Positions 8,607-22,623 of a stretch of 24,376 nt of DNA are shown piece after piece; position 1 is the first letter of the stretch; each line of letters starts with the position of its first letter. Location of the stretch: IMG/VR virus record IMGVR_UViG_3300024475_000251, positions 1 to 24,376 of that record, one strand, 5' to 3'. Under the pieces are notes generated by a model, which saw nothing but the letters and a program-made list of their open reading frames with translations, was not told the DNA's origin and did no database searches. Position numbers and translations under genes: made by a program. The DNA is from a virus.

Positions 8607-10910
8607 TTATATTGTGCAACTGTCGCAATCTTCTTCATATTGAATCTCATCCGGAAGTTCCAAAGACACACCTTCAACACGATCACTCATGTCGTCGCCG
8701 CTTCCATCATATGTGTTGAAGTAGTACAACTGCTTGGTTCCATATTTATACGCCATTAGCAAATGCTGTAGCATTGTACTCATTGGGATCTTTTCATCTT
8801 CATAGTGTTGTGGGTTGTAGCTGGTGTTTACACTAATGCCTTGGTCAATATACTTTTGTAGTACTGCCATGATCTTAATGTAGCCTTCAGGACTTTGCTG
8901 ATCCCACAGTAGTTCATACTTGTTTTTCAAACGAGGATATCCAGGAACAACTTGCTTTAGAACACCGTCCTTGCTTTGCTTGACACTGACAAACGCACGA
9001 GGCGGCTCAATGCCGTTTGTGCTGTTTGATATCTGCGCACTTGTTTCAGCAGGCATAAGTGCCATTAGTGTGCTGTTACGAATACCAGTTGCTGCAAGTT
9101 GCTTGCGCAGACCTTTCCAATCCATGCGTTCTTGATGTTTAACAAGATCATCTACATCTTTCTTATAAGTTTGGTTAGGCGTAATGCCATCGCCATACTT
9201 TGTTTCATTTGTACCAGGGCAAGCACCTTGCTCAACTGCTAGGTCTGCACTGGCTTTAATTAGGTAGTAACTCCAAGCCTCAGCATACTCATCAATGAGA
9301 TCCAAGTTTGGGTTAGTATAAGTTGTATCATTCCGTGCAAGAAAGTATGCAAGGTTAATGATACCAACGCCTAGAGGACGGCGTTTCATTGTGCTGCGTT
9401 CTGCTGCTTTAACAGGATAGTTTTGATAACTTAGCAGTGCATCAAGTCCACGAACTGCAAGTTCACAAGGCTTTGCAAAATCTTCTGGCTTACGAATATT
9501 GCCCCAGTTGATAGCACTAAGCGTACACAGTGCAATCTCACCTTCTTCGTCATTAAAGTCGTTAAGTGGCTTTGTAGGCAAGTTGATCTCACAGCACAAA
9601 TTGCTCTGTTTGATAGGTGCTAGTTCAGGTTTGAAACTGCCATGATCGTTACTGTGGTCTACATTCTGCAAATAAATGCGTCCTGTGTTTTTGCGCTCTT
9701 CCATGAAACTTGCAAACAACTGTGCTGCTGGTAATGTCTTTTTGCGGATACTTGTTTTGCGTTCTGCTGCTTCGTATAGTTCCTTAAACTTGTCTTGATC
9801 TGCAAAAAATGCATCATACAATCCAGGAACATCATGTGGACTAAACAGTGTAATGTTGCCACCTGAGATCAGTCGTTCATAGAACAGTTTTGAGAACTGA
9901 ACTCCGTAGTCCATGTGGCGGACTCGGTTGTCTTCTGTTCCTTTATTGTTTTTAAGCACGAGCAGATCCTCGACTTCGTAATGCCATATAGGGTAATACA
10001 AAGTAGCGGCTCCGTTTCGCACGCCACCTTGAGAACATGATCTCGTAGCGGATTGAAACATTTTATAGAAGGGGATAACTCCTGTGTGGTAAGCATCTCC
10101 CGCTCTAATAGGCGAGCCCAGGGCCCGTATGGATCCTGCTCCGATGCCAATGCCGGCTTTTTGACTAACATACTTAACAATGCTGCTAGTAGTAGCATTG
10201 ATACTATCCAGACTGTCGTCTGTTTCAATAAGTACGCAACTTGAAAACTGTCTCTGTGGAGTGCGTACACCAGCCATAACAGGAGTAGGAAGGCTAACGT
10301 CGAATGTAGCTATAGCGTCATAGTAATCCTTTACCCACTGCATACGAGTTTCCTTAGGATAATGTGCAAACAATGTTGCTGCAATAAGTGCGTATGCTAC
10401 TTGTGGTGTTTCGAATATTTCGCCTGTGACGCGATTCTTTACTAGATACTTTCCTCTAAACTGCTCCATTGCAGCATAGGTTAAATTTTCGTCACGATCA
10501 TGTTTAATGAAGTCATTGATAGCACTCCATTCGTCATCGTCATAACTAGCAATTAGTTCCTGATCATAGAAACCAATCTCAACATTACGGGCAACAATCT
10601 TCTTAATATGCCAAGGCTCAAACTCGCCATAAACCATTTTGCGTAAGTGATAGTTAATAAGTCTACCACCCACAAACTGATAGCCAGGAGTCTCTTCACT
10701 GATTAAGTCTGCTGCACTTTTGATAAGTGTTTCTTGGATGTCAACGCTTGACATGCCGTTATAAAATTGTATGTGACTGCGAATTTCAACTTCACTTGCA
10801 CTAACACCTGTGATGCCTTCACACGCATAAAAAACGACCTTGTGGATCTTGTCCAATTCAAGGTCTTCTGTGGTACCATCACGTTTGGTGATCTGAATTT
10901 GCTTGTTCAT
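8607..10910 (-). CDS. nrdA: Class Ia ribonucleotide reductase alpha subunit
   Basis: The 767-residue protein matches E. coli NrdA almost position for position: C225 and C462 (redox pair), N437, C439 (thiyl radical) and E441 at the active site, tyrosines 729-730 in the radical path (QLYYFNT), and a C-terminal CDSC at 762-765 for re-reduction by thioredoxin or glutaredoxin. Residues 1-95 form an ATP-cone, the allosteric activity domain. It reduces ribonucleoside diphosphates together with NrdB. It is the first gene of the nrd-grx operon and has a late-type box about 43 nt upstream. Confidence 0.97.
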   Translation of the reverse strand: MNKQIQITKRDGTTEDLELDKIHKVVFYACEGITGVSASEVEIRSHIQFYNGMSSVDIQETLIKSAADLISEETPGYQFVGGRLINYHLRKMVYGEFEPWHIKKIVARNVEIGFYDQELIASYDDDEWSAINDFIKHDRDENLTYAAMEQFRGKYLVKNRVTGEIFETPQVAYALIAATLFAHYPKETRMQWVKDYYDAIATFDVSLPTPVMAGVRTPQRQFSSCVLIETDDSLDSINATTSSIVKYVSQKAGIGIGAGSIRALGSPIRAGDAYHTGVIPFYKMFQSATRSCSQGGVRNGAATLYYPIWHYEVEDLLVLKNNKGTEDNRVRHMDYGVQFSKLFYERLISGGNITLFSPHDVPGLYDAFFADQDKFKELYEAAERKTSIRKKTLPAAQLFASFMEERKNTGRIYLQNVDHSNDHGSFKPELAPIKQSNLCCEINLPTKPLNDFNDEEGEIALCTLSAINWGNIRKPEDFAKPCELAVRGLDALLSYQNYPVKAAERSTMKRRPLGVGIINLAYFLARNDTTYTNPNLDLIDEYAEAWSYYLIKASADLAVEQGACPGTNETKYGDGITPNQTYKKDVDDLVKHQERMDWKGLRKQLAATGIRNSTLMALMPAETSAQISNSTNGIEPPRAFVSVKQSKDGVLKQVVPGYPRLKNKYELLWDQQSPEGYIKIMAVLQKYIDQGISVNTSYNPQHYEDEKIPMSTMLQHLLMAYKYGTKQLYYFNTYDGSGDDMSDRVEGVSLELPDEIQYEEDCDSCTI

Positions 10911-11020: not shown

Positions 11021-12592
11021 TTATTGAATCAATCTAATACTGTATTTGAACGTTGCAGCCGATCCGGTGCTAGTTGTAGTATACTGTAGTGTAGTAATAT
11101 TTGAACTATTTGTCAAGTTAAAAGTTACACCTGCACTGCCATTATTTTCACTAAAATCATCGTCTAGTACCTGTGCAGTTGCATCATGTGTAATACGCAT
11201 AGTACCTTGACGCTTGGTTGTGCCGCGCACAATACTGTAGTCAATTTCTACAATGTTCTCTAGACTGTTGTTATCTGAGAATGTAACACCTGTTGACTGA
11301 TTACTAACATTGTCAGTTAGTGTTGCTGTTTGCCCATAGTTACGAATGTAAGAGCCAAACTGTGCTCCACTGTTCTGCACACTAAGTCCAAAATGACTAA
11401 CACGCAAAGTAGTTGTTGTTTCATCAGCATCTGGACGCTCAAAATCATCGCCGATACTGTGCATACCGACGCCAGCATATTCAATAACATGTGTACTAGC
11501 ATTGCCACTACCGAGATTGTTGTTAGCACAATCTTTAAATGTATTGTTAGCACTTGTAAAGCCAGGCCCATAGTAAACATGAATGGCACGATTATAGATG
11601 TCATTAAACAAACTGTTAGTAACTTTTACGCCGCGCGGCCCATTAACTGCCGGTGCAACACCTGTTCTAGCTTCGCCAATCTTTAGTCCTTTAAACAACG
11701 TATCAAACTGGCAACCAGTAAATGTAATGCTGCTCATGTCGTGATCTGCTACTACACCAAACGGACTGTTATTAAAGATACATCCTAAGAACTGCACATG
11801 TTCACTCTCGCGAGTTGTACTACTTTCAATTTTTACACTTGTTCTGCCCGTACTTGTTGGCACTGCAGATTCGTTGCCTCTAAAACGACAGTTTAAAAAT
11901 GTCATATGTTTTGCTTGGTTAACAACAAATGCATCAATGCCAGCTACTGCGGCCCAAAATGTTAGTCCATCAATAACAACATTGCCTGGTAATGCTGCGC
12001 CACTTGCACCAATACTACCATCTGTTTGTTGCAGAGCATCGCTAGTCATAGCAACTGCGTCACCTCCAGCAGTTGTACATTTGATAATACTACTATCAAA
12101 TCCATCGCCCCATAGTTTAGCGTATGTAGGAATCTTTAGTACGTCTGTTACAATGTAAGTACCCGCTGGGAAGAACAATGCACGACGAATCTCTGTGTTT
12201 GTTGCACGACTGAACAGTTGAAACAGTGCGCGGTTAATTGCTGCAGTATCATCTGTTACACCATCACCTTTAGCACCAAAGTCTTTAACACTAGCATGGT
12301 CATCATACTTTTGCTGCATGGTGCGTGTAATTGGATCATTGGCAGTTAAACCAGTTGTAGCAGTATAGCCTGCTGCAGCACCCTTGTAGGTGTAGGTATC
12401 TGCACTGTCAAGCAAGTCGCTGTTTGCTGTTAGTAGTTCAATGTTCTCAATCTGTGGAGCATCTGTGCCGCCATTGCCAATGTAAATTCTGCGTGTATCT
12501 ACCGCAAGACCAAGCTCGCCCACTGCTAGTTGTGGTAAGTTATCAGCAACGCCTCTACGATGTTGAATTCTCGAGATTTGCACAATCGCCAT
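11021..12592 (-). CDS. Tail fibre/tailspike with pectate-lyase-like beta-helix
   Basis: The 523-residue protein starts with a short domain (IQHRRG at 9-14, GELGLAVDTRRIYIGNG at 25-41) common at the N-terminus of phage fibre proteins. Residues 101-120 contain SVKDFGAKGDGVTDDT, the entry of the pectate-lyase_3 superfamily right-handed beta-helix, followed by many short strand repeats (IDGLTFWAA, FLNCRFRGN, FLGCIFNNS, FTGCQFDTL, VTNSLFNDI). The C-terminus is a beta-rich head. Such proteins form trimers that bind or cleave surface polysaccharide and set host range. It has its own late box and a GTAGGAG ribosome site. Confidence 0.85.
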   Translation of the reverse strand: MAIVQISRIQHRRGVADNLPQLAVGELGLAVDTRRIYIGNGGTDAPQIENIELLTANSDLLDSADTYTYKGAAAGYTATTGLTANDPITRTMQQKYDDHASVKDFGAKGDGVTDDTAAINRALFQLFSRATNTEIRRALFFPAGTYIVTDVLKIPTYAKLWGDGFDSSIIKCTTAGGDAVAMTSDALQQTDGSIGASGAALPGNVVIDGLTFWAAVAGIDAFVVNQAKHMTFLNCRFRGNESAVPTSTGRTSVKIESSTTRESEHVQFLGCIFNNSPFGVVADHDMSSITFTGCQFDTLFKGLKIGEARTGVAPAVNGPRGVKVTNSLFNDIYNRAIHVYYGPGFTSANNTFKDCANNNLGSGNASTHVIEYAGVGMHSIGDDFERPDADETTTTLRVSHFGLSVQNSGAQFGSYIRNYGQTATLTDNVSNQSTGVTFSDNNSLENIVEIDYSIVRGTTKRQGTMRITHDATAQVLDDDFSENNGSAGVTFNLTNSSNITTLQYTTTSTGSAATFKYSIRLIQ

Positions 12593-12619: not shown

Positions 12620-12627
12620 GTATTTAT
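12620..12627 (-). promoter_or_regulatory. Late promoter for the tailspike gene
   Basis: The minus strand reads ATAAATAC followed by TACATTA, close to the T4 late consensus. It overlaps the stop codon of the nuclease gene and lies 28 nt before the tailspike ATG, leaving room for a leader with GTAGGAG. Confidence 0.75.
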
Positions 12628-13304
12628 CCTTGCTCGTAGTACTGAGCGACTCTGTCAAACCATATATTACTGTAGTGGTCAAATGCAGCACCTTCCAGTA
12701 TCCATTCCTGGTACTGATAGTCTTTGCTGCACATAAGAATAACACCTTTGTTGATACTAGTTTCAAACATATTATTGTGTGCATGAGCATAAGCACATAA
12801 CTGCAGGAAGTAATCTTCTACCCATTCAGTTTTCTTTGGCTTATTTGTTTGCTTAAAATCGAGAATAGCGGGATCGCCAGCATGCACACCAACTAGGTCA
12901 GTTGTGCCTGCATATAGTCCACTGTAGTAAAGAGGAACTTCTGTACCCCAATACTCATCTGCATTTTTAAGACCATGCTCAATGACAAGCTCTGCCATAC
13001 GATGGCTTTGCGCACTGTAAGGATTGCTACCAGGTGTGCCAATCTCACCAGTCATAACATAGTCCTCAAGCCACTTGTGCATGCGAGTGCCTCTGCCTGC
13101 TGCTTCAGTGACAATCTGCTGTGCTTTTTCCTCACCAACCCGTTTTTTCCAATTAGCAAGTGCTTGCATCTTTTCTTTAGACTTTGTCTTGTCGAGGATC
13201 GTAGTGACACTAGGCACTGCATTTCCATCTGGAGTTGCATAGTGCCTTTTGCCTTCAATTGTTTTTCTATTAATGGGTTTATAGTCGTATCTGTTAATAA
13301 GCAT
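12624..13304 (-). CDS. PD-(D/E)XK (RecB-like) nuclease
   Basis: The 226-residue protein has the motifs of RecB-family exonucleases in order: GTRMHKWLE with H76, GTTDLVG with D136, LDFKQTNK with D149-x-K151 (the catalytic D-x-K pair), and QLCAY with Q168 and Y172. These chelate two metal ions for DNA cleavage. The protein is close to full size for a single-domain member. Its job could be DNA processing during recombination, packaging-associated trimming or host DNA breakdown. The start codon sits inside a perfect inverted repeat and has no clear Shine-Dalgarno sequence. Confidence 0.85.
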   Translation of the reverse strand: MLINRYDYKPINRKTIEGKRHYATPDGNAVPSVTTILDKTKSKEKMQALANWKKRVGEEKAQQIVTEAAGRGTRMHKWLEDYVMTGEIGTPGSNPYSAQSHRMAELVIEHGLKNADEYWGTEVPLYYSGLYAGTTDLVGVHAGDPAILDFKQTNKPKKTEWVEDYFLQLCAYAHAHNNMFETSINKGVILMCSKDYQYQEWILEGAAFDHYSNIWFDRVAQYYEQG

Positions 13305-13681: not shown

Positions 13682-13950
13682 TAATCGTACATGAAGATAA
13701 CTTCTGTGCTACCTTCCTCCATGTCTACAATTTCGTATCCGCCTGGAAATCTTTTATCAAGTTCATCTAGTAAAGAATCTTTAGGTTCATCATCTGTAAA
13801 GAATGTTGCACGGATGTAGCCTTCATCTTCTTCGCCAAACATGCCGTTGATGCCCAAAAAGTCAACCATGTCAATCACAGCATTTTCAACTTCTTTTTCG
13901 CTAGGATACTTTTTTGTTTTTTCGTTAAGTTTGTCTAATAAGTCACGCAT
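13681..13950 (-). CDS. Small acidic protein, unknown
   Basis: The start is taken at ATG 13950 (MRDLLDKLNEKTKKYPSEKE), overlapping the previous stop by 8 nt. The frame is open to 14019, but the longer N-terminus lies inside the upstream gene. The 89-residue protein is charged: a helical N-terminus, then GYIRATFFTDDEP and YEIVDMEEGSTEVIFMYD, suggesting a small alpha/beta domain. The function is unknown. Confidence 0.7.
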   Translation of the reverse strand: MRDLLDKLNEKTKKYPSEKEVENAVIDMVDFLGINGMFGEEDEGYIRATFFTDDEPKDSLLDELDKRFPGGYEIVDMEEGSTEVIFMYD

Positions 13951-14836
13951 TTTTCTTTGCCATCTTAGTTGCTGTAGCGTAGTAAATCGCTTCGCCTTGT
14001 TCTTTACCATAGCGGTCAATAAAGTCTGACTTTGGTAGTTTCTTTTCGTAATGCTTCATCTTACGCTTTTCTGCTTTAGTAAGACTGCGCTCTTTAAATG
14101 CTTGCCATGCCTCATTGACACTCTCACCAGCATGCATTGCAGCCATGTGCTTGCGATACTTTTCAGTACCTTTCTTGTGTGGGCTCTTGCCTTCACCAAT
14201 CATGTTAAACAGTTTAGGCATTAGTTTGTTAAACTTTTCAATTGTGCCAATACGCTGAATGATTGCTTCTTTACTGTTGTCGTTAACTTTGTCATAGATT
14301 TGTGTAAGCACACTAGCAGTGTACATGTCGATCATTTGTTTGCCATCACCAAACTCAACTTTACTTGCTTGTTTGTTAGCAACAATATCACGCATCTGTT
14401 TCATAACATCTGTGCGTGTGTCAACTTGTCTGCCATCTTTGCCAAACATTTTACTTAGGTGTGGCGGAAGTTCGCCTTCAACAAATTCTTTGGTTCTCAT
14501 CTTAGTTGCCCTTTGTGCCATTTTTGCAACACGCTCATCATCTGGCATGTCTGTTTGCGGCTCCTCATATCCTGCGCCTTCGTCTTCTGCATCTGCACTT
14601 GCAAATGTGATACTATCCTTGTCAAACTTAGCAATAACATTTGCAAGTTGTGGATTAGTATCAAATACTGTTTTAAAACCTTCATAGTCAACAACTACAC
14701 CTGCGTTAGCAAGCATCTGTAGAAAGCCGTTCATGCTAAGTTTACCCTGCTTGTCACGCTGACTAGCACGGTTCTGTGCAATCATTGCTGCACTCATAAT
14801 AGCATCTACTGCACTATCTACTTCAAAGAAACGCAT
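13943..14836 (-). CDS. Helical protein with capsid-targeting-like N-terminus, unknown
   Basis: The 297-residue protein begins MRFFEVDSAVDAIMSAA, which shares the M-R-F-x-E start seen in other genes of this region. It is mostly predicted helix, with an acidic linker near 80-102 (DAEDEGAGYEE, DMPDDERV) and a strongly basic C-terminus rich in Lys, Arg and His (HKKGTEKYRKH; LTKAEKRKMKHYEKKL). It starts in a TAATG overlap after the 67-residue gene. Such composition fits a scaffold-core or internal head protein that touches DNA. No enzyme motif is seen. Confidence 0.7.
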   Translation of the reverse strand: MRFFEVDSAVDAIMSAAMIAQNRASQRDKQGKLSMNGFLQMLANAGVVVDYEGFKTVFDTNPQLANVIAKFDKDSITFASADAEDEGAGYEEPQTDMPDDERVAKMAQRATKMRTKEFVEGELPPHLSKMFGKDGRQVDTRTDVMKQMRDIVANKQASKVEFGDGKQMIDMYTASVLTQIYDKVNDNSKEAIIQRIGTIEKFNKLMPKLFNMIGEGKSPHKKGTEKYRKHMAAMHAGESVNEAWQAFKERSLTKAEKRKMKHYEKKLPKSDFIDRYGKEQGEAIYYATATKMAKKNA

Positions 14837-15039
14837 TATGCACTAAAGCCCATTACGCCGCTACGACCTAGCATGTCTTTAAACTCTGCAAATTCAACAT
14901 CGCCATCTGCTAGTTCAACTTGTTCCACTTCAGGTGCTGTTTCTGGTGCTGCTGTTTCAACTGCAACTTCTTCTGCAACTGGTGTTGTAATAGCATCCAA
15001 ACGATCTTGTAATGCTCTCATGTCAACTGTTGTATACAT
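14836..15039 (-). CDS. Small acidic protein, unknown
   Basis: The 67-residue product has a helical start (MYTTVDMRALQDRLDAI) and an Ala/Glu/Pro/Val-rich acidic middle (VAEEVAVETAAPETAPEVEQ), then EFAEFKDMLGRSG. It shares TAATG junctions on both sides, so it is coupled to the 258- and 297-residue genes. The composition recalls small prohead-core proteins, but no specific homologue is recognised. Confidence 0.7.
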   Translation of the reverse strand: MYTTVDMRALQDRLDAITTPVAEEVAVETAAPETAPEVEQVELADGDVEFAEFKDMLGRSGVMGFSA

Positions 15040-15815
15040 TATGCTCTCTTTTCTCTGCCTACTGGTGCTTCTTCGCCGCCCTGTGCTGCAGGTGCTGCTG
15101 CAAACTCATCTTCAATTGGCTCTTCAATTGGTTCCATGTCTGCTACATCATCCATGTCCATGCCCATTGGTTCTGCAGGTGCATCGCCAACTAGTACACG
15201 AGTTGCATTGTCTGCTGCAACACGATCATTTTTCATTGTGTCCAAAGTGTTCTGTAGTGCGCCTGTCATTCCTGCAACAAACTGATCTGCAATGTCCGAA
15301 CCCATTTCATCACGGATCTTATCTGCTACTGGTGCTAGTTCTTCGTTAAGCATTTCGCCTACATCTTGAATCATTGCATCGTACTTGTCAACCATGCTCT
15401 TAGCAGCCATGATCAATTCGCTTGACTCAACTGCGCCTTCGTTCATCTTCTTTTTCTTTTTGCCGTAAGAACCTTCGTCTGCTTTCTCTTTTTTATCTTT
15501 AGCAGCCTTTTTCATTGGCTCTTTAGTATCACCATCTTTGTCAAGATCTAAAAAGTCTGGCTTTGCTTTCTTTTCAGCGATGTGCTTAGTAAGTGCCTCA
15601 AGTGCAATCTTCATCTCATAATACTTTGTACGAGTTTGACTTGCACTACCTAGTTTACTTTCATAGATAGCCATCTGGTCACTGAGGTTCTTGTGTAGAC
15701 GCTGCGCTTTTGTTTCACTTAGATTGTCTAAGTCTAGCGCATATCCAAATACACGTTTTGCTAATTGGTTTACTTTTGATGCACTTGGTGCAGGTACGAG
15801 TTCGTTAAGGTTCAT
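15039..15815 (-). CDS. Charged scaffold-like protein with EF-hand-like loop
   Basis: The 258-residue protein begins MNLNELVPAPSASK and has a helical first 90 residues. DLDKDGDTKEPM (about residues 95-106) follows, matching the DxDxDG part of a calcium-binding loop but lacking the final glutamate. A lysine-rich stretch (KKAAKDKKEKADEGSYGKKKKK) then leads to a helical segment (about 130-200) and an acidic Met/Asp/Glu/Pro tail. The high charge and disorder suit a prohead core or scaffold protein. It has its own late box and the ribosome site AAAGGGAAG. It is the first gene of the series running to 13322. Confidence 0.7.
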   Translation of the reverse strand: MNLNELVPAPSASKVNQLAKRVFGYALDLDNLSETKAQRLHKNLSDQMAIYESKLGSASQTRTKYYEMKIALEALTKHIAEKKAKPDFLDLDKDGDTKEPMKKAAKDKKEKADEGSYGKKKKKMNEGAVESSELIMAAKSMVDKYDAMIQDVGEMLNEELAPVADKIRDEMGSDIADQFVAGMTGALQNTLDTMKNDRVAADNATRVLVGDAPAEPMGMDMDDVADMEPIEEPIEDEFAAAPAAQGGEEAPVGREKRA

Positions 15816-15840
15816 GGTTCTTCCCTTTAAATTATATAGT

Positions 15841-15848
15841 GTATTTAT
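15841..15848 (-). promoter_or_regulatory. Late promoter for the 15815 operon
   Basis: The minus strand reads ATAAATACACTATA, a strong late-type match. It lies 26 nt before the ATG and next to the stop codon of the gene upstream, with a normal leader containing AAAGGGAAG. Confidence 0.75.
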
Positions 15849-16276
15849 TAAACTGAAATGGTTTTGAGTAATTGTGTGAGCGCACTATCTGCTTGCTGAA
15901 GGCGGGGCATGTCTGCACTGATGCGGTGACTCATGATATTTTTGCGCACTTGATTGCTGTTACGCAAATGATAGTGGTAGAAGTCTATGTCTGTTTTAAT
16001 TTTTTGCAGTTTACGATCTAGTTCTTTTATTGTTTTTGCTTTGTTTGCGTCATTGCGTAGCAAGCACAGGGCATATCCCACTGCACTTTTACGTCTATAA
16101 AAACTCTCATCTTTGCATATCCACTCACCGTAAAGATTTTCAATGACAATGTCATTGACTTTTACAGCGCCATGTTCAAGTTTGCTGATTCTTATTTCAG
16201 GAGTGAAATCAAGTAAGCGATCAATACGTTGATGTAGAGTTTGCTGCCTTGGAAAGTTTATAATAGATGCTGTCAT
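15848..16276 (-). CDS. Small basic helical protein, unknown
   Basis: The 142-residue protein starts at ATG 16276 and overlaps the gene upstream by 56 nt. It has a beta-type segment (ISKLEHGAVKVNDIVIENLYGEWICKD is cut by charged turns) followed by a helical basic region (KAKTIKELDRKLQKIK and on). The length of the overlap is unusual, but the frame keeps a consistent composition. No family is recognised. Confidence 0.65.
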   Translation of the reverse strand: MTASIINFPRQQTLHQRIDRLLDFTPEIRISKLEHGAVKVNDIVIENLYGEWICKDESFYRRKSAVGYALCLLRNDANKAKTIKELDRKLQKIKTDIDFYHYHLRNSNQVRKNIMSHRISADMPRLQQADSALTQLLKTISV

Positions 16277-16448
16277 CGTGCTTTTGCCTTGTTAGAATAG
16301 ATTTTTCAGTTAAGCGGCGTGCCACTTGTTGTTGTCTCTCACTTAAATCTCTCTTATTGACAGGACCCTTGCTCATTGTCTCAATGAGATCCTGCTCCTC
16401 CTTGGTTACAAAAGTCTGAAGACCACTTGTAAATTCTACAAAACGCAT
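16221..16448 (-). CDS. Small protein with capsid-targeting-like N-terminus
   Basis: The 75-residue product begins MRFVEFTSGLQTF and is otherwise charged and helical (EEQDLIETMSKG, RDLSERQQQVARRL), with a short beta-type end. The middle could be a winged-helix-like DNA-binding unit, but this is only an impression. The ATG overlaps the stop of the gene upstream in a TAATG junction. The N-terminus matches the M-R-F-x-E pattern shared by several genes here. Confidence 0.65.
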   Translation of the reverse strand: MRFVEFTSGLQTFVTKEEQDLIETMSKGPVNKRDLSERQQQVARRLTEKSILTRQKHDDSIYYKLSKAANSTSTY

Positions 16449-16732
16449 TATCGTAAACTGCTTACGTTAACGTCAACCATTGCACCTTTTGCACGGCGAA
16501 TCAAGTTCGCTCTGTCTGCAGGTGTTAGTTCATCTGTAATCTGTATCATACCGTTAGGTCCTGACAGATCTATTTTTTTATCGCTTAGATTCATCGTAAA
16601 TGTAATACGTGGATCATTTGGATCAGCAAATGTTGCAGTAAAGCCTTGTGTGCCTGTTAGAATATACTGTGCTTCGTTTAACTGTACATGTTTACCTACG
16701 GTTATACCATACTGTGCTTCTAATATTTTCAT
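16448..16732 (-). CDS. Small protein with capsid-targeting-like N-terminus, beta-rich
   Basis: The 94-residue product begins MKILEAQYGITVG, followed by strand-like repeats (QYILTGTQGFTATFAD, RITFTMNLSDKKIDLSG, GMIQITDEL) and a helical end (PADRANLIRRAKGAM). It starts in an ATGA overlap with the basic-protein gene. It is probably a small virion component. No homologue is recognised. Confidence 0.65.
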   Translation of the reverse strand: MKILEAQYGITVGKHVQLNEAQYILTGTQGFTATFADPNDPRITFTMNLSDKKIDLSGPNGMIQITDELTPADRANLIRRAKGAMVDVNVSSLR

Positions 16733-16998
16733 CTGCTTGCCTTGTTTAGTGCTGCTACACGTTTACTTGCTGGATTAACTCTTTTTGTTTTCTTTGATTT
16801 GCGTGCCATTCTTGCGCCCAAGCGTGCCTTAGTCATCTTTAACTTGATACGCTTTTTAATATCTGGTGCTGCAAAGCACTGTGCTGGTGAACTTACTATA
16901 CGGCTTTTGCGTCTGCCGCTGGTGCAACGAAACTTGCGGACAACTTTGTTGCCTCGTTTTGCCCATGCCATACCTTCAGTAAGTTCGCTTAAAATCAT
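16729..16998 (-). CDS. Very basic small protein with likely prohead-protease site
   Basis: The 89-residue protein is dominated by Lys and Arg (RRKSR, IKKRIKLKMTKAR, ARKSKKTKR) and has two cysteines (25 and 41). It looks like a DNA-condensing protein. The N-terminus MILSELTEGMAWAKRG contains L-T-E followed by G, which fits the cleavage rule of the T4 prohead protease gp21 ([LI]-x-E before A, G or S). It was probably made for the head interior. A box ATAAATAC ends 3 nt before the ATG and there is no Shine-Dalgarno sequence, as at the PAAR gene. Confidence 0.75.
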   Translation of the reverse strand: MILSELTEGMAWAKRGNKVVRKFRCTSGRRKSRIVSSPAQCFAAPDIKKRIKLKMTKARLGARMARKSKKTKRVNPASKRVAALNKASR

Positions 16999-17001
16999 AC
17001 T

Positions 17002-17009
17002 GTATTTAT
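17002..17009 (-). promoter_or_regulatory. Late-promoter-like box 3 nt from start of the basic-protein gene
   Basis: The minus strand reads ATAAATACAGTATG, ending in the start codon. This is the same 14-base sequence found at the PAAR gene (4813-4826). Normal box-to-start geometry would place the RNA start at or within the ATG. Confidence 0.6.
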
Positions 17010-17016
17010 GCTTGTA

Positions 17017-17271
17017 TTATTTTGTTAGTAAAACAAATAGTAGTGCGCCAACCGCGCTTGTTAGGACACCGATAACAGCAATGCCCCAGTTGATTAGTTG
17101 TTGTTGCCTGTCAGTTTTCAGGCGGATCATCATGTCTCGCAGTTCTGAGAGTGTTTGTTCAAACTTCTCCATGCGAGCACCCATACCTTTGAGTTCTCTC
17201 ACGAGTGTAGTGTACCTTTCGCTGCACAAGTCTACATGTGCTTCTAAAGACTCTTTTTCAAGTTCTGACAT
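17017..17271 (-). CDS. Coiled-coil protein with C-terminal membrane anchor
   Basis: The 84-residue protein begins MSELEKESLEAHVDLC. Residues 1-57 form a heptad-like helix (YTTLVRELKGMGARMEKF and on), and residues 60-82 a single transmembrane helix (INWGIAVIGVLTSAVGALL), leaving a two-residue tail. This topology resembles small phage holin- or spanin-like accessory proteins, but no direct lysis evidence is present. A 6-bp hairpin (17277-17296) sits just before its TTAGGA ribosome site. Confidence 0.75.
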   Translation of the reverse strand: MSELEKESLEAHVDLCSERYTTLVRELKGMGARMEKFEQTLSELRDMMIRLKTDRQQQLINWGIAVIGVLTSAVGALLFVLLTK

Positions 17272-17276
17272 TCCTA

Positions 17277-17296
17277 ATCACCTACCTTGGGGTGAT
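17277..17296 (-). promoter_or_regulatory. Hairpin in the leader of the coiled-coil membrane gene
   Basis: ATCACC and GGTGAT form a perfect 6-bp stem with an 8-nt loop, directly followed on the minus strand by TTAGGAATG, which holds the ribosome site and start. The hairpin could modulate access of the ribosome. The rest of the gap 17297-17373 shows no gene. Confidence 0.4.
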
Positions 17297-17370
17297 GTCT
17301 AGATTTTCTATTGCCTTGTTATGTGCCTATAAGTGTTTTTTATGTGTGCCTAATGTTCTAGCATCATTGT

Positions 17371-17378
17371 TATTTATT
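17371..17378 (-). promoter_or_regulatory. Weak late-promoter-like box
   Basis: The minus strand reads AATAAATA followed by ACAATG. It overlaps the stop of the 155-residue gene and would give a leader of roughly 90 nt for the coiled-coil membrane gene. It lacks the usual C after the box, so confidence is modest. Confidence 0.4.
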
Positions 17379-17841
17379 TGAGAGTGGGTGCAGGGAAAAA
17401 CTGTATGTTAATTAATTCAGAGTTGCTAGTGTGGAATACACTGGGTTCTAGTTTAATAGTTTCAGTAAGATCGGGTATTACTGGTACTAGATCAAACAGA
17501 CCAAGTAGTGTATCGCAGTCCAGTACATCTGCTCGTTCACTGCCAATGGCAAACACCCAAAAGCGTGTATCTGGTCTAAGCATTTCAACTACAAACTGGT
17601 GCTGCTTGCCCATGCGTTTAAATAGTTCACTGCCCACAAAGTTATCATCTGCATTGTAAAAATGTTCCTCTGGAAGCTGTAGTATAACAGGCTGTGTTTG
17701 TAGTCCAAAGATTTGTAGCACAGTCTCCCAGTTACGCTGCTGATTGCGAGCTAGATTTTCACCTCTAGTTACACCTGTGCATGTAACGTCTACAAAACTT
17801 ACACCATAAACTGCACTGGGCATATCAAATACTGCGCCCAT
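17374..17841 (-). CDS. Unknown beta-rich protein
   Basis: The 155-residue product begins MGAVFDMPSAVYGVSFVDVTCTG. It has alternating strand-like segments (PVILQLPEEHF, HQFVVEMLRPDTRFWVFAIGSE) and a C-terminal acidic stretch with many Leu and Val. It overlaps the ParB-like gene by 17 nt and is co-transcribed with it. No domain is recognised; the lack of signal peptide and the context suggest a virion or morphogenesis protein. Confidence 0.65.
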   Translation of the reverse strand: MGAVFDMPSAVYGVSFVDVTCTGVTRGENLARNQQRNWETVLQIFGLQTQPVILQLPEEHFYNADDNFVGSELFKRMGKQHQFVVEMLRPDTRFWVFAIGSERADVLDCDTLLGLFDLVPVIPDLTETIKLEPSVFHTSNSELINIQFFPAPTLK

Positions 17842-18253
17842 GCTTGCCTCCGTGTAGTGGATCTTTTTCTCTGAGTTGTTCGCCTAGTTTAAGCAGCGTG
17901 TTTACATCATCAAACAGTATTGCATCTGCACTTGTGTATCCCATGAACTTTAAACACTTGAGTCTGTTGCTACCAGTCTTTAGTGCCCAGATCATACCAT
18001 CTTCATTTACAACTGGAGGATTTATTCCGGGCCATGATTCACTTTTACCGAACCAGCCTTTAAACTTAGTGTTCCACCATTCAGGAGTAACTTTGTAGTA
18101 TAGTAAAGGATACCACATGCCATCATCCATCACTTTAGGCAAGTCACGCCAATACCAACGATTGTCCTTGCGGGCACTCATTGGACTTAGTTTGCTTAGT
18201 TCAACTGTGTGTATGCCGGGATGGTCTTGCCAAATACTGCTTGCATGTTTCAT
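17825..18253 (-). CDS. ParB/Srx-like fold protein
   Basis: The 142-residue protein has the order seen in ParB-like N-terminal domains: a conserved strand with ELSKLSP (about 18-24), RDLPKVMDDGMWYPLLYY (36 on), then NEDGMIWALKTGSNRLKCLK and FMGYTSADAILFDD. The GSNRLKCLKFMGY part parallels the GxxR-x-x-A-x-x-x-x-G box of ParB/sulfiredoxin proteins, which bind nucleotide or DNA. The usual nuclease Arg context is only partly kept. Its role in the phage is unknown. It has a late box 8 nt upstream and follows a strong terminator. Confidence 0.6.
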   Translation of the reverse strand: MKHASSIWQDHPGIHTVELSKLSPMSARKDNRWYWRDLPKVMDDGMWYPLLYYKVTPEWWNTKFKGWFGKSESWPGINPPVVNEDGMIWALKTGSNRLKCLKFMGYTSADAILFDDVNTLLKLGEQLREKDPLHGGKHGRSI

Positions 18254-18260
18254 TATAACA

Positions 18261-18268
18261 GTATTTAA
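18261..18268 (-). promoter_or_regulatory. Late-promoter-like box (TTAAATAC)
   Basis: The minus strand reads TTAAATACTGTTATAATG before the ParB-like gene, 7 nt from the true ATG, so the leader would be very short. It lies just after the terminator of the gene upstream, as expected for an independent transcript. Confidence 0.55.
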
Positions 18269-18273
18269 CTCAT

Positions 18274-18304
18274 AAAAAAAGCGCCACTTAAAAAGTGACG
18301 CTTT
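18274..18304 (-). terminator. Rho-independent terminator after the 83-residue gene
   Basis: The minus strand forms an 11-bp stem, AAGCGTCACTT with AAGTGGCGCTT (one G-U pair), around a 3-nt loop, followed by a run of seven T. On the plus strand the same pair becomes an A-C mismatch, so it is optimised for minus-strand RNA. It separates the small virion-protein genes from the ParB-like operon. Confidence 0.85.
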
Positions 18305-18322
18305 AATAATTGGTAGTCTAAA

Positions 18323-18574
18323 TTATGCTACAGTAAATGTTGCTACTAGTGAAACACCACTAATTGCTTCTGCGCCACCTGGTCCACCTTGAACCATAAT
18401 GTGGTTGCCGTCTGCTACACCTTCAACTGCTGCAATTGTACCAAAGTACTCTTCTGCAATCTGCTGAGCTGCTGCTGCTGTTGTGATTGTACCTGTTGCA
18501 ACTGCATAAATGTATGTTGTTGGTCCTAGACCACTACCGGCTGTAACTGTTGCGTTAGTTGTAATTCTAGCCAT
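18323..18574 (-). CDS. Small abundant-type virion protein (possible decoration protein)
   Basis: The 83-residue product begins MARITTNATVTAGSGLGPTT and is rich in Ala, Gly, Thr and Val, with no Cys, a beta-type make-up and a VSLVATFTVA end. It has its own late box, a strong AAGGAG ribosome site and a terminator. Together these imply high expression, as for capsid decoration or head-fibre proteins. Its initiation region is identical over 18 nt to that of the 133-residue gene. No family is recognised. Confidence 0.7.
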   Translation of the reverse strand: MARITTNATVTAGSGLGPTTYIYAVATGTITTAAAAQQIAEEYFGTIAAVEGVADGNHIMVQGGPGGAEAISGVSLVATFTVA

Positions 18575-18618
18575 TTTCTTATCTCCTTAAACGATGTATC
18601 TCTACACCTCTATTGTAA

Positions 18619-18626
18619 GTATTTAT
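18619..18626 (-). promoter_or_regulatory. Late promoter for the 83-residue gene
   Basis: The minus strand reads ATAAATACTTACAATA, a good late match, 44 nt before the ATG. The leader contains AAGGAGATAAGAAA, a strong ribosome site. Confidence 0.75.
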
Positions 18627-18631
18627 GTATC

Positions 18632-19033
18632 TTATACGAATTCTAAGCCGCTAGTAGTAACTGTTGTACCACTGACGTCTACTGTATTTGCGCCAACTGA
18701 ACCGCCTAGTGCGCGGATAGCTGTTTGCAATGTTCCTGTTGTCCATGCACCTGCTGGGTAAACTGCTACACTGATTTGACCAGTTGCATCACCTTCTACC
18801 TGATACATTTCTACATTGCCTTTTGTTTCAATTGCTTGCATGATTGCTACAACTGACTCTGCCGCGTCTAGTTCGTTAGTAATATCAACAACTTCTGCTG
18901 AACCGTTAGTTACAATAATTTTGAAAAAGTCCAGTTCTGGACCGTTTAGAATCACTAGTTCGTCTGCAGAAATTGCGCCTGCTGGTGAACCGTGTGCTTT
19001 TGCGTTTCCGTTTACACGAGTTACGTCTGCCAT
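18632..19033 (-). CDS. Small virion-type protein, unknown
   Basis: The 133-residue product begins MADVTRVNGNAKAHGSPAG and has strand-like segments (ELVILNGPELDFFKIIVTNG, NVEMYQVEGDATGQISVAVY) and a Thr/Val/Gly-rich end, typical of surface proteins with a beta fold. It has its own late box and an AGGAGATAAG leader, shared with the next gene. That gene arrangement suggests parallel high-level synthesis of two small structural proteins. The function is unknown. Confidence 0.7.
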   Translation of the reverse strand: MADVTRVNGNAKAHGSPAGAISADELVILNGPELDFFKIIVTNGSAEVVDITNELDAAESVVAIMQAIETKGNVEMYQVEGDATGQISVAVYPAGAWTTGTLQTAIRALGGSVGANTVDVSGTTVTTSGLEFV

Positions 19034-19074
19034 TTTCTTATCTCCTATTAATGCAAGTCTATTCTTGCTTAGAA

Positions 19075-19082
19075 GTATTTAT
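19075..19082 (-). promoter_or_regulatory. Late promoter for the 133-residue gene
   Basis: The minus strand reads ATAAATACTTCTAAG, 41 nt before the ATG at 19033 and just after the end of the upstream gene, with AGGAGATAAG in the leader. Confidence 0.75.
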
Positions 19083-19096
19083 TAAGAAAAGGTAAT

Positions 19097-19765
19097 TTAT
19101 CCTGTGAAACTACTACGTCCGATTGCATAACCTGCCGCAAAGCCTGCGGCTGCTTTTGCCCAAGTCGGTAAACCTTTTTTCTCATCTGGAATAAGTTTTT
19201 TGTCTTTAATAGTACCCATATACTTTTTACTAATATCACTGCGGAACTTACCATCTACACGCTGACTGTTGACCATTCTGGCACTTAATGCAGTGCGTTC
19301 GCCAGCATTGCTTCTGTTGTAGTCGGCACTTACACGTCTTGCTGCTTTTAGGAAACTACTGTCAATGCCCAAATTCTTTTGCTGGCGCATAAGAAATGTT
19401 CTATCCATTGCTTGATTTGTTCTGCCGGCTGCAATGTCACGCAAATAACGTTTAAATCCTAGCTCGTCAAAACTTACGTTGCCGCCGCTTGTAACACCTT
19501 GGTACTTGCCGGGATTGTTAATAATGCTTGCAAGGTTATGTAGATCAGTGCCGCCTGGTTTTACACTGCTAAAGTTCATAAACTTTAGTGTATCTTTTGC
19601 ATACTTTTTTGCAAATGCTGGATTTTCAAAACGCATCTGCTGCAACATAAGCAGTTGTTCAAAGAAACTTTCTCCAACATCTGTCATGTCTCTTCCAACT
19701 GTGTCTGCTGCACTGCGAATATAACGTGCTTCTGTAATTTCTTCTCTGATAAATTCAAATGCCAT
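19097..19765 (-). CDS. Probable internal or structural protein with capsid-targeting-like N-terminus
   Basis: The 222-residue protein begins MAFEFIREEITEARYIRS. I-T-E followed by A fits the T4 prohead-protease rule, with cleavage after E12. The body is helical and basic (FFEQLLMLQQMRFENPAF, KNLGIDSSFLKAARR and on), and the C-terminus has a Gly/Ala-rich hydrophobic stretch (WAKAAAGFAAGYAIGRS) like a glycine-zipper membrane segment. It starts in a TAATG overlap after the 438-residue gene. It may be carried in the head and act on a membrane after injection; this is inference. Confidence 0.7.
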   Translation of the reverse strand: MAFEFIREEITEARYIRSAADTVGRDMTDVGESFFEQLLMLQQMRFENPAFAKKYAKDTLKFMNFSSVKPGGTDLHNLASIINNPGKYQGVTSGGNVSFDELGFKRYLRDIAAGRTNQAMDRTFLMRQQKNLGIDSSFLKAARRVSADYNRSNAGERTALSARMVNSQRVDGKFRSDISKKYMGTIKDKKLIPDEKKGLPTWAKAAAGFAAGYAIGRSSFTG

Positions 19766-21081
19766 TATCTTAACCTTATGACTTTCTTTGGTGGACCTTT
19801 GCGCCAGCCTGTATAGAATACGTCTTGATCCTTATAAGGATCTGTTTTATTTTTTGGTTTGGCAGGCGGTACTACAACTGGTGGAGGAGTAACCGGTGGC
19901 GCAACTGCTGTCTGTGGTTGTGCAATCGTTGTTGCAACTGTATCTGTTTGTGCTTGTGTTTGTGTCGTTGCCTGGGTATTTGCTACTGTGCCTGTCTCTG
20001 CACCTGTTCCTGCTTGTGCGCCTGTGCCTGTCTCTGCACCTGTTCCTGCTTGTGCGCCAGCACCAGCCTGTGTGCCAGTGCCACTAGTAGTGCCTGAAGT
20101 AGCACCCGGTACTCCTTGGCCTGCTTCGTCACCTGGTCTAACAACAGGTGGAGCAATAGGCTTGGATATTGTTTTATCATCTGGTTTTGTTGTTGGACCA
20201 GATTTAGGAGGTGCACCTGGAATGCCATCCTTTGACCAATCTGTGCGTCCTCCTGGTTTCGGCAAGTCGCTACTTTGAGGAGGCACAGTTGAAGGTTTAA
20301 CATCATCCTCACCACCAAACAATCCACCTACTGCGCCTGCAACAGTATTAAAGACACCGCCAACTGCATCGCCTGCACGATCCAACCAACTAGGACCGCT
20401 TTTATCAATACTGCCAGCACTAGGTTTACTAATAGTAGTGCCAGGTGCGCTTATATCATCAACTTGTCCTGTTACAGGTTTGCCTGTGACTTTACCCATG
20501 TCTTTGTATGGAACAAAACCTCGTTTGTCTTTACTCAATACCCCGCCTGCATCAGGGCTTACTTTGTATGTTTTACCGCCGATATTTACCACTGTGCCAT
20601 CTTTTAACCTTGGCAATGCTTTCTGTGCGTTTGCTTGACTGTCAAATCTAGTAATATTACTTACAATTACATCGCCTATCTTTTTTTGAATCGCTTGTGC
20701 TGTTTCTTTGCGGCGTAACATACCATTTTTATCTTTTACATAGTCACTGGGTTGTGCTGGCTTGTTGCCTGTAGTGCTACCACCTGTCATCCAATCCCAT
20801 GCACTTGAAAATGCACTTGCTATAGGAAAGGCTACATCGCCTACTTTACTAGGATCTTTAGGAAGTGCACCTGCATCTTGCCCTTGTTTAATTTGTTTTC
20901 CAAATTCATTTGCTTGTGATGGATTGTTTTTAATCCAACGATCAATATTTCTCGCTGTTTCTGGATTGCCAGCGACCATTGCTCCGCCTGCAGCAAGCAG
21001 TGCTAGAATATAAGGAGCAAGAGCAACTACTGCTACTTCATCTACACGCTGTCGAGGTTCTTTAAACTCTCTTAGTCTCAT
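19765..21081 (-). CDS. Low-complexity protein with hydrophobic segment and capsid-targeting-like N-terminus
   Basis: The 438-residue protein begins MRLREFKEPRQRVDEVAVV, with a hydrophobic stretch at about 16-37 (VVALAPYILALLAAGGAMV). The middle has charged linkers, a second Gly/Ala/Val hydrophobic segment near 240 (AVGGVFNTVAGAVGGLFGG) and a long Pro/Thr/Gly/Ala region. A near-perfect repeat (GTGAQAGTGAET) is encoded by a 36-bp tandem repeat in the C-terminal third. The last residues are basic (RKGPPKKVIRLR). It is coupled by TAATG junctions on both sides. It could be an injected, membrane-active or flexible-linker virion protein; no enzyme motif is seen. Confidence 0.65.
   Translation of the reverse strand: MRLREFKEPRQRVDEVAVVALAPYILALLAAGGAMVAGNPETARNIDRWIKNNPSQANEFGKQIKQGQDAGALPKDPSKVGDVAFPIASAFSSAWDWMTGGSTTGNKPAQPSDYVKDKNGMLRRKETAQAIQKKIGDVIVSNITRFDSQANAQKALPRLKDGTVVNIGGKTYKVSPDAGGVLSKDKRGFVPYKDMGKVTGKPVTGQVDDISAPGTTISKPSAGSIDKSGPSWLDRAGDAVGGVFNTVAGAVGGLFGGEDDVKPSTVPPQSSDLPKPGGRTDWSKDGIPGAPPKSGPTTKPDDKTISKPIAPPVVRPGDEAGQGVPGATSGTTSGTGTQAGAGAQAGTGAETGTGAQAGTGAETGTVANTQATTQTQAQTDTVATTIAQPQTAVAPPVTPPPVVVPPAKPKNKTDPYKDQDVFYTGWRKGPPKKVIRLR
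19987..20058 (-). repeat. 36-bp tandem repeat (two full copies) in coding sequence
   Basis: Two identical copies, at 19987-20022 and 20023-20058, encode a 12-residue unit (GAQAGTGAETGT type) inside the 438-residue protein. A degraded third copy (agcaccagcctgtgtgcc) follows at about 20059-20076. Being a multiple of three, gain or loss of units would keep the frame and vary linker length. Confidence 0.8.
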
Positions 21082-22304
21082 TACTTGCTCCAGTTCTTAA
21101 CAGCATTGAAGTTTTGTTTACTAAACTCCATACGGTCAACCAGTTTAACTGCACCACTGTCTTTACCAATAGCAACAAAACCTTCTGGGTTTGTTACTGT
21201 GTATCCTGTATCAGTACGAATAAGTGACTTAATACTGTCTACTTTATTTAATTTATTTATAAGCATATTTTTTAGTGCAATGATGTCTTTGTACACTGCA
21301 AGCGCACTGGCAATACCTGTCATGTTGTCAGTGATAAACTTGTTCTGTGCGGCAATTGCATCTGTACGTTTCTTTACTGCAGGACTCTCAGGATCTTGAT
21401 TCTTTAGTTTTGCAATTTCTTTTTGTATGTAGTCGTTATACCACTGTGTAAAGTCTGTAGCAAAACTCTGCGAATCGTCTATTTGTGTATCGCCACGTTT
21501 AATTCTTGCATTTACATACTGCATGAACAATTTTTTATAATCTTCATTGCTAACTGCTGCAAAGTCTGCAGTTTTAAGTGCGCCTGCTGCGGCCGTCATT
21601 CCCTTAAGGATTTTTGAGTTTTCTGCTTGTGATAGGCTTGCCTGTCCACTTAGATCTTTGTATACTGCATCGTCAACCCATATACTTGCAATTTTGTTTA
21701 GTCCACTTACATCCGCACCGAAATTTGCAGTCATTTCAGGCACACTGTCTCCAGTGTATGTTGTGTGAAATATAATACCCATTTCACTTGCAGCAATACG
21801 TTTACCCAATTTACTGTTTTTTGGTACTGCATATGTAATAGTGTTTGGTTGGAACACCCAACTCTCTTCACCATCAATATCTGCAGATTCTAGATCTGCT
21901 TGTGTATACATCATATCGCCTTGTAGTACACCTTGAATACCCAGTTTAGGAAGTAATTTTAATGCTAGTGTGAGTTTGTCACGCAAGCCTCCACTGTATC
22001 CATACTTGTCAAGGTCCGCTGTGCTTTTTACAAGTTTACCTGTTTTACTGAATACACCTTTAGTGCCAACAAAAAACTTACCGTCTGCAGGATCTGTACC
22101 AGCAAATATAGCAGGAGCACCGTCCCACTTTACAGTTATGTTACCACTGTCGCCGCCATTCTCCAGCATGTCACGCACACTGTTAATATACTGTAACGCA
22201 CTTTGCGCACCAGGCTTGCCTTGAAGAAATACTAGATCTTCAATATGCTCAAGATGGGTGTTTTTACCTTCAGCAGCCTCGGCTACTATTTCTCTGAAGC
22301 GCAT
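21081..22304 (-). CDS. Ligase-type nucleotidyltransferase-like protein, likely head-targeted
   Basis: The 407-residue protein carries motifs of covalent nucleotidyltransferases (DNA/RNA ligase superfamily) in order: motif I KWDG at 59-62 (K59 would bind AMP), LQGDMM at 127-132 (motif III type), GIIFHTTY at 176-183 (IIIa type), EGFV at 374-377 (motif IV) and VKLVD at 386-390 (motif V). The N-terminus MRFREIVAEAAEGKN resembles the T4 internal-protein targeting peptide, with V-A-E followed by A as a possible protease site. A long helical insert lies between IIIa and IV. It might repair or modify nucleic acid after injection, or be an inactive relative. I believe this is the DUF6267 family. Motif I and V are convincing; the reaction is inference. 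Confidence 0.75.
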   Translation of the reverse strand: MRFREIVAEAAEGKNTHLEHIEDLVFLQGKPGAQSALQYINSVRDMLENGGDSGNITVKWDGAPAIFAGTDPADGKFFVGTKGVFSKTGKLVKSTADLDKYGYSGGLRDKLTLALKLLPKLGIQGVLQGDMMYTQADLESADIDGEESWVFQPNTITYAVPKNSKLGKRIAASEMGIIFHTTYTGDSVPEMTANFGADVSGLNKIASIWVDDAVYKDLSGQASLSQAENSKILKGMTAAAGALKTADFAAVSNEDYKKLFMQYVNARIKRGDTQIDDSQSFATDFTQWYNDYIQKEIAKLKNQDPESPAVKKRTDAIAAQNKFITDNMTGIASALAVYKDIIALKNMLINKLNKVDSIKSLIRTDTGYTVTNPEGFVAIGKDSGAVKLVDRMEFSKQNFNAVKNWSK

Positions 22305-22549
22305 TTGCTTTCGTTGACTTTCCGAATACCTCGCACAAACTTACGACTGTCCTGATGTTTAATACTGTTTAGCAGACGGCGTTCTAAATCACCTGCCACA
22401 TCGGCATCATAATGCTTGTGCATTTCATTAATAAGATTGATTGCGCTCTCTATCACGTTAGTTGCTCGACTTTCCATTACATGTTGTCTATCTTTTTCAA
22501 CAATCATGCTGTTTAGTTCGTGTAGTATACTACGGGTCTGTTTACGCAT
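22286..22549 (-). CDS. Small helical charged protein
   Basis: The 87-residue product begins MRKQTRSILHELNSMIVEKDR and is almost wholly helical, with mixed charge, and no membrane segment. It is the first gene of the operon that continues with the ligase-like protein, overlapping it by 19 nt. The ribosome site is AAGGACG, under a late box at 22572-22579. No family is recognised; a coat-assembly or chaperone-like role is possible. Confidence 0.65.
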   Translation of the reverse strand: MRKQTRSILHELNSMIVEKDRQHVMESRATNVIESAINLINEMHKHYDADVAGDLERRLLNSIKHQDSRKFVRGIRKVNESKCASEK

Positions 22550-22590: not shown

Positions 22591-22623
22591 AACATTACAT
22601 TATTGTACATTGAGGAGAGAACA

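What the first reader, a model, noticed from the sequence alone, without database searches (positions are those of the whole stretch)
13943..22304. A family of capsid-targeting-like N-termini across unrelated genes
Unrelated proteins in this stretch start with M-[RK]-[FLI]-x-E or a close variant: MRFREIVAEA, MRLREFKEPR, MAFEFIREEITEA, MILSELTEGM, MKILEAQYG, MRFVEFTSG, MRFFEVDSA, MNLNELVPA. T4 internal proteins start MKTYQEFIAEA and are cut by the gp21 protease after [LI]-x-E. Several here have a fitting site (V-A-E/A, I-T-E/A, L-T-E/G). The region may encode a set of proteins packaged in the head and injected with the DNA.
Basis: partly seen in the sequence, partly recalled or inferred. Interest (0 to 1): 0.8.

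Follow-up and report, generated by a model that had tools for sequence, protein, structure and literature searches.

The report
Head-targeting tags on phage cargo proteins
A stretch of a marine T4-like phage genome encodes proteins of kinds found in virus particles, and several begin with a short removable tag like the one phage T4 uses to load proteins into its head, which suggests that this group of phages carries ready-made proteins into the host along with its DNA.

Summary
M[RK][FLI]xE starts 5 of 17 genes in the stretch, none of the other 20 window genes and 13 of 2,714 genes in nine related phages. The five proteins are otherwise unrelated and use different codons. The stretch is a conserved block between the gp41-type helicase and the exonuclease/NrdA genes; in relatives the same block encodes virion proteins found by mass spectrometry (PA5oct, Atu_ph07, S-SZBM1, S-CREM2). 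T4 gp61.1, MKTFKEFIKED, lies at the same place.

The DUF6267 protein (MRFREIVAE|A) fits the T4 capsid-targeting sequence: its predicted cleavage Glu is invariant in 33 homologues while the leader varies. Three more fit well (19097, 16729, 16448), one is plausible (19765), three do not fit (16221, 13943, 15039). Independent support: a cyanophage NMNAT-like enzyme detected in virions of S-SZBM1 and S-CREM2 starts MRFRQFIIE|A or MKNFSSFLTE|A; 30 of 31 distinct N-termini of its homologues fit the T4 pattern. A gp21-type protease was found in 10 of 12 relatives first searched and in both cyanophages. Packaging, cleavage and injection are inferred for this phage; none is shown.

The parts
22278..22304 (-). 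Leader MRFREIVAE of the DUF6267 protein, predicted cut E9|A10
   Evidence: T4 spacing (F3, I6, V7, E9); P1 Glu 33/33 and P3 L/V/I 33/33 in nonredundant homologues whose leaders are 6-21 residues long
21081..22304 (-). DUF6267 protein, 407 aa, with KWDG, EGxV and KLV motifs
   Evidence: PF19782 E 1.9e-104, phrog_455; motif residues nearly invariant
21037..21081 (-). Plausible leader MRLREFKEPRQRVDE of 19765-21081
   Evidence: [VI]-[DN]-E kept in 4/5 relatives, LRE at residue 5 in 5/5
19730..19765 (-). Leader MAFEFIREEITE of 19097-19765, predicted cut E12|A13
   Evidence: site kept in 14/14 relatives; jumbo-phage homologues have LNE|SNVIR and LEE|SSVIR at the matching place
16975..16998 (-). Leader MILSELTE of the basic protein 16729-16998, predicted cut E8|G9
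   Evidence: x-E|G kept in 7/7 relatives behind different leaders; mature part pI 12.0, 28 Lys/Arg in 81 aa
16673..16732 (-). Leader of 16448-16732, MKILEAQYGITVGKHVQLNE, predicted cut E20|A21 (a second site at E5)
   Evidence: [LI]-[NY]-E|A kept in 8/8 relatives behind a stretch of variable length and sequence
16221..16448 (-). Virion-protein family (phrog_16215); MRFVEF start is part of the fold, not a leader
   Evidence: PHROG match; homologue SCTP-2 gp10 aligned from residue 1; AlphaFold model has strand 2-6
15039..15815 (-). Homologue of PA5oct gp247, a protein detected in virions; no leader
   Evidence: phrog_14154; profile match 1.9e-11; ESI-MS/MS mark
13943..14836 (-). MRFFEVDSA protein; no L/I-x-E site; role unknown
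   Evidence: N-terminus kept 5/5; homology to the positional equivalents not supported
22286..22549 (-). Virion structural protein family next to the helicase side of the block
   Evidence: phrog_11854; PA5oct gp259 8e-17, Vibrio phage 4.6e-20
13322..13681 (-). Homologue of PA5oct gp245, detected in virions
   Evidence: profile match 1.2e-8; ESI-MS/MS mark
11021..12592 (-). Pectate-lyase-like protein with tropism-determinant-like N-terminal domain; homologue of PA5oct gp243, detected in virions
   Evidence: PF12708 and PF18454; profile match 1.2e-6; ESI-MS/MS mark
12624..13304 (-). Exonuclease, anchor of the conserved gene order
   Evidence: phrog_298; 45% identical to PA5oct exonuclease
8607..10910 (-). 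Ribonucleotide reductase NrdA, anchor of the conserved gene order
   Evidence: 57% identical to PA5oct NrdA

Best explanation
The stretch is a block of virion-protein genes set inside the replication and nucleotide module, between the gp41-type helicase and the exonuclease/NrdA genes. Several of its products (the DUF6267 protein, 19097, 16729, 16448, probably 19765) carry a T4-type capsid-targeting leader: a few residues with hydrophobic anchors, ending in [L/I/V/F]-x-E. During head assembly the leader would bind the scaffold core, so that the protein is built into the prohead; the phage's gp21-type protease would then cut after the Glu, and the mature protein would stay with the DNA and enter the host with it. 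Shown: the leaders, their conservation, the gene order, the protease in relatives, and virion detection of relatives or positional equivalents. Inferred: packaging, cleavage and injection in this phage.
For: Motif enriched in the block against nine phages. DUF6267: P1 Glu and hydrophobic P3 invariant in 33 homologues with variable leaders, many T4-like to the letter (MKTFADFITE|Q, MKSFKKYIAE|A). T4 rules: residues 4 and 7 target, 8 and 10 process, cut after L/I-x-E (PMC9026906). A strict T4 pattern fixed finds in T4 IPII, IPIII, Alt, gp24, gp2 and gp61.1; in S-CREM2 it marks 5 proteins of the virion list against 2 of 179 others, p 0.009. NMNAT-like enzyme found in virions of S-SZBM1 and S-CREM2 has the leader, as do 30/31 distinct N-termini of its homologues. 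Block = virion-protein cluster in PA5oct and Atu_ph07 CDS 31-76, 29 proteins detected (PMC6102473). gp21-type protease in 10 of 12 relatives and both cyanophages.
Against: No virion data for this phage or for any leader-bearing DUF6267 protein. Three of the eight N-termini do not fit. In the window's own relatives, [LIVMF]-x-E sites in the body are conserved nearly as often (16/37) as near the start (14/21). The 16729 homologue in SCTP-2 has no leader. Virion proteomes can hold contaminants. p-values are not corrected for the number of patterns.
Confidence: 0.7

Rival explanations
1. The block encodes virion proteins, but only the DUF6267 protein has a true head-targeting leader; the other similar starts are ordinary N-termini of small structural proteins that begin with a charged residue and a hydrophobic strand.
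For: 16221 is such a case by its predicted fold; 13943 and 15039 have no site; the site conservation test does not separate N-terminal from body sites in the window's relatives.
Against: 19097, 16729 and 16448 keep the site while the residues before it change; in other families of such blocks (NMNAT-like, zeta-toxin-like kinase) the same site closes unrelated leaders.
Confidence: 0.17
2. The N-terminal signals direct the proteins to another virion part or assembly partner (tail, baseplate, or a core docking role without cleavage) and nothing is injected.
For: The block also encodes 11021, a pectate-lyase-like protein with a tropism-determinant-like domain, so it is not a head-only block; detection in virions does not say where in the virion.
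Against: The spacing and the Glu match the head-targeting and protease rules of T4; enzymes such as NMNAT-like proteins and SAM hydrolase are unlikely tail parts (inference).
Confidence: 0.08
3. Chance, or a bias of start regions in this genome.
For: The pattern is short and was chosen after looking.
Against: 5/17 in the block against 0/20 in the rest of the window and 13/2,714 elsewhere, with different codons; the DUF6267 site is kept over long distances.
Confidence: 0.05

Closest known systems
T4 capsid-targeting sequence and internal proteins (IPI, IPII, IPIII, Alt) cut by gp21
   Same: Short N-terminal leader, hydrophobic anchors three residues apart, [L/I/V]-x-E before A/G/S/Q, gp21-type protease in relatives; some cargo very basic (16729); T4 gp61.1 with a leader lies in the same gap between genes 41 and 61.
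   Different: Cargo proteins are unrelated to T4's, are gathered in a block of the replication module, and some leaders have one residue less between anchor and Glu. Packaging, cleavage and injection not shown here.
Virion-associated enzymes of cyanophages (NMNAT/cytidylyltransferase, APH/ChoK-like kinase, SAM hydrolase; PMC9146016, PMC10665884, PMC9602691)
   Same: Reported in purified virions; those of S-SZBM1 and S-CREM2 carry T4-type leaders; the NMNAT gene lies beside DUF6267 in the same block of S-SZBM1.
   Different: The passages read do not mention a targeting sequence, and the S-CREM2 paper leaves contamination open. The window has no NMNAT gene.
Head propeptides and ejection proteins of phiKZ-like phages (SPN3US)
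   Same: Many proteins packaged in the head, cut by a gp21-related protease after a Glu (PMC5694885).
   Different: Motif A-x-E rather than L/I-x-E; a different phage group.

Membership tests
T4-type capsid-targeting sequence | Targeting anchors at the positions of T4 residues 4 and 7 | tested here: met
   DUF6267 protein (F3, I6) fits; of the eight only this one meets the strict pattern
T4-type capsid-targeting sequence | Processing site L/I-x-E within about 7-20 residues of the start, conserved | tested here: met
   DUF6267 (V/I/L at P3), 19097, 16729 and 16448 met; 19765 partly
T4-type capsid-targeting sequence | The same for 16221, 13943 and 15039 | tested here: not met
   16221 start is a strand of the fold; 13943 and 15039 lack a conserved site
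T4-type capsid-targeting sequence | A gp21-type protease in the same phage | tested here: inconclusive
   window is a 24 kb fragment without it; present in relatives including G001
T4-type capsid-targeting sequence | The leader alone brings a protein into the head and is removed | not testable with these tools
   needs virion proteomics or a reporter
Covalent nucleotidyltransferase / ligase superfamily (DUF6267 protein) | KxDG plus downstream motifs, and the ligase fold | tested here: inconclusive
   KWDG, EGxV and KLV nearly invariant, but fold search, PDB profile search and hhalign to T4 ligases gave no match; model pLDDT 71

The most novel reading that the evidence does not exclude
A dedicated cargo block beside gene 41, conserved from T4 (gp61.1) through cyanophages and pelagiphages to Rak2-like jumbo phages, where an enzyme that acquires a T4-type leader is loaded into the head and injected. 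It would account for unexplained enzymes in cyanophage virions and would include a possible nucleic-acid-joining enzyme (DUF6267) and, in Atu_ph07, a tandem array of about ten related proteins.
Probability: 0.4. Interest if true: 0.78.

Novelty: new variant of a known kind. Interest (0 to 1): 0.62.

Why it matters
It gives a sequence rule that predicts which proteins of marine T4-like and Rak2-like phages are carried in the head. It would explain enzymes repeatedly found in cyanophage virions that authors could not tell from contaminants, and it turns a set of unknown genes of abundant ocean viruses into candidates for the first minutes of host takeover. I found no paper naming DUF6267 and none linking cyanophage virion enzymes to a capsid-targeting sequence in the library searched; most subscription journals are not in it.

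Tried and rejected
hhalign of 13943 to its positional equivalents in PA5oct, RaK2, SCTP-2 and Vibrio phage 2.275: no support, so homology is not claimed; also none for 18323, 16448, 17825, 17374, nor for DUF6267 with PA5oct gp256. AlphaFold model of DUF6267 with Foldseek and VIA searches: only helical-bundle matches, ligase fold not shown; PDB profile search empty. hhalign of the Atu_ph07 array to T4 Alt: negative. Site conservation within the window's own relatives as a general proof: body sites are conserved nearly as often. S-CREM2 gp12 has RFASFMAEA at residues 18-26, but the codon before it is CTG, so it is not counted as a leader. My matching of gene ends counted 95 and 55 detected genes where slightly fewer (about 93 and 52) had been entered; the pattern hits themselves were checked against the lists.
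Full report
What was checked. The window is a 24,376-base viral fragment with no match to the Peptidase_S77 model. The pattern M[RK][FLI].E is found in 5 of 17 genes of the stretch, 0 of the other 20 window genes and 13 of 2,714 genes called in nine phages. The pattern was chosen from the data, so the nominal 1.5e-8 is too small, but the contrast is large. The proteins share nothing else by BLASTP and use different codons at the shared residues.

Where it lies. In close relatives the order is primase, DnaB/gp41-type helicase, a lipase on the other strand, then DUF6267 and the rest, ending in the exonuclease. Window NrdA is 57% and the exonuclease 45% identical to those of jumbo phage PA5oct. 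PA5oct, RaK2, Salicola SCTP-2 and Vibrio phage 2.275 have a similar arrangement, and in pelagiphage HTVC008M, phage Melnitz, Syn9 and S-SZBM1 a corresponding block lies between helicase gp41 and primase/NrdA. In T4 the gap between genes 41 and 61 holds gp61.1, which starts MKTFKEFIKED, a leader by the T4 rule. I know of no virion data for gp61.1.

The block encodes virion proteins elsewhere. In the PA5oct record 12 of the 16 genes from gp258 to gp243 carry the mark ESI-MS/MS. Profile comparison links window 15039 to gp247 (1.9e-11), 13322 to gp245 (1.2e-8) and 11021 to gp243 (1.2e-6), all so marked, and 22286 to gp259 (8e-17), labelled virion structural. Window 22286, 16221 and 15039 match PHROGs labelled virion structural protein. 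In Atu_ph07 the paper gives the helicase as gp70, which fits counting genes from the start of the record, and names CDS 31-76 as one of three large virion-protein clusters, with 29 proteins found by ESI-MS/MS and only two of them predicted (PMC6102473). That range is the matching block. Which genes in it were detected could not be read, as the supplement is not available here.

The leader. T4's capsid-targeting sequence MKTYQEFIAE|A targets mainly through residues 4 and 7 and is processed through residues 8 and 10; gp21 cuts after L/I-x-E (PMC9026906). MRFREIVAE|A has the same spacing. In 33 nonredundant DUF6267 homologues the Glu is invariant, P3 is L, V or I in all, and P1' is mostly A, Q or S, although leader length runs from 6 to 21 residues. 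Many distant ones are T4-like to the letter, such as MKTFADFITE|Q and MKSFKKYIAE|A. Some window-like relatives (L007, L017, L030) replace the leader and keep V-T-E|A. In the structural model residues 1-17 have very low confidence, which is compatible with a detachable piece.

Independent tests. A strict T4 pattern (anchors, P3 and Glu in T4 spacing) was fixed, before any proteome was looked at. In T4 it finds six genes: IPII, IPIII, Alt, gp24, gp2 and gp61.1. In S-CREM2 it marks five proteins of the virion list, among them SAM hydrolase MKDFDSFLEE, an APH/ChoK-like kinase MKRFDAFLTEE and a cytidylyltransferase MKNFSSFLTEA, against two of 179 others (p 0.009). These p-values are not corrected for the number of patterns. 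In S-SZBM1 the cytidylyltransferase next to DUF6267 was found in virions (PMC9146016) and starts MRFRQFIIEA; 30 of 31 distinct N-termini of its homologues in viral contigs match the strict pattern, and the last has the leader behind an upstream ATG. Zeta-toxin-like kinases of pelagiphage-like contigs keep a hydrophobic-x-E|G site behind several quite different leaders. DUF6267 relatives without a leader exist in S-SZBM1 and S-CREM2 and are not in those virion lists; this is a contrast of two cases, not a proof.

The other seven N-termini. 19097: ITE|A is kept in 14/14 relatives, with LNE|S and LEE|S at the matching place in distant jumbo-phage homologues. 16729: E|G is kept in 7/7 behind different leaders; the mature part has 28 Lys/Arg in 81 residues, basic like T4 internal proteins; but its homologue in SCTP-2 lacks the leader. 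16448: [LI]-[NY]-E|A is kept in 8/8 behind a variable stretch. 19765: plausible only. 16221: the start is a predicted strand of a small mixed fold and is shared with SCTP-2 gp10 from residue 1, so not a leader. 13943 and 15039: no suitable conserved site. A caution: in the window's own relatives such sites in the body of proteins are conserved nearly as often (16/37) as those near the start (14/21), so the argument rests on DUF6267, on the remote homologues and on the proteomes.

Mechanism. Most likely the leader docks the protein on the scaffold core, the gp21-type protease found in 10 of 12 relatives first searched and in both cyanophages removes it, and the mature protein is ejected with the DNA, as for T4 Alt and the internal proteins. 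Only leader, conservation, gene order, protease in relatives and virion presence of relatives are shown. What DUF6267 would do in the host is unknown; its KWDG, EGxV and KLV motifs suggest nucleotidyl transfer or nucleic-acid joining, but no fold or profile match supports this.

Novelty. The targeting system is T4's. What appears new is the cargo, the conserved block in marine and jumbo relatives, and the link to unexplained enzymes in cyanophage virions; the passages read report those enzymes without mentioning a targeting sequence, and no paper in the library names DUF6267. Earlier reports in subscription journals cannot be excluded.

Noticed in passing
L357 6747-12455 and L359 19485-24885 (Agrobacterium phage Atu_ph07, gp53-gp63): Eleven genes in a row start M[RK][WL].[QD]L[TNIL]E; most of them are paralogues (phrog_11975/12810, function unknown) with YRG, SxxF and E[IV][MW] motifs that by eye resemble ADP-ribosyltransferases; no Pfam match and no hhalign match to T4 Alt.
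   Followed up: partly
L287 1067-1231 (T4 gene 61.1): T4 gp61.1 starts MKTFKEFIKED, a capsid-targeting-like leader, and lies between genes 41 and 61.
   Followed up: partly
L288-L356: Zeta-toxin-like P-loop kinases of pelagiphage-like contigs have leaders of different sequence and length that end in a hydrophobic-x-E|G site.
   Followed up: partly
S-CREM2 OR473000 7704-10313 (gp12): The virion-detected protein annotated as CRISPR-Cas9 nuclease has RFASFMAEA at residues 18-26, a leader-like stretch behind a short N-terminal extension.
   Followed up: partly
window 420-1511: Ring-hydroxylating oxygenase catalytic domain (PF00848); by eye the usual Rieske cluster cysteines of the N-terminal part seem to be missing.
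   Followed up: no
window 6552-6995: Match to the C-terminal domain of arginyl-tRNA-protein transferase (PF04377, 1.4e-5) in a phage.
   Followed up: no
window 22603-24353: A class 3 lipase on the + strand and a radical SAM protein lie between the helicase side and the block; the lipase is kept in many relatives.
   Followed up: no
G001 48792-50053, 97451-98506, 216331-217155: Further unrelated proteins of the 230 kb relative start MRISEIAVGEA, MRIFEFDQKE (GNAT-like by eye), MRLNEIAN and MKYRELIFEAG, away from its DUF6267 gene.
   Followed up: no
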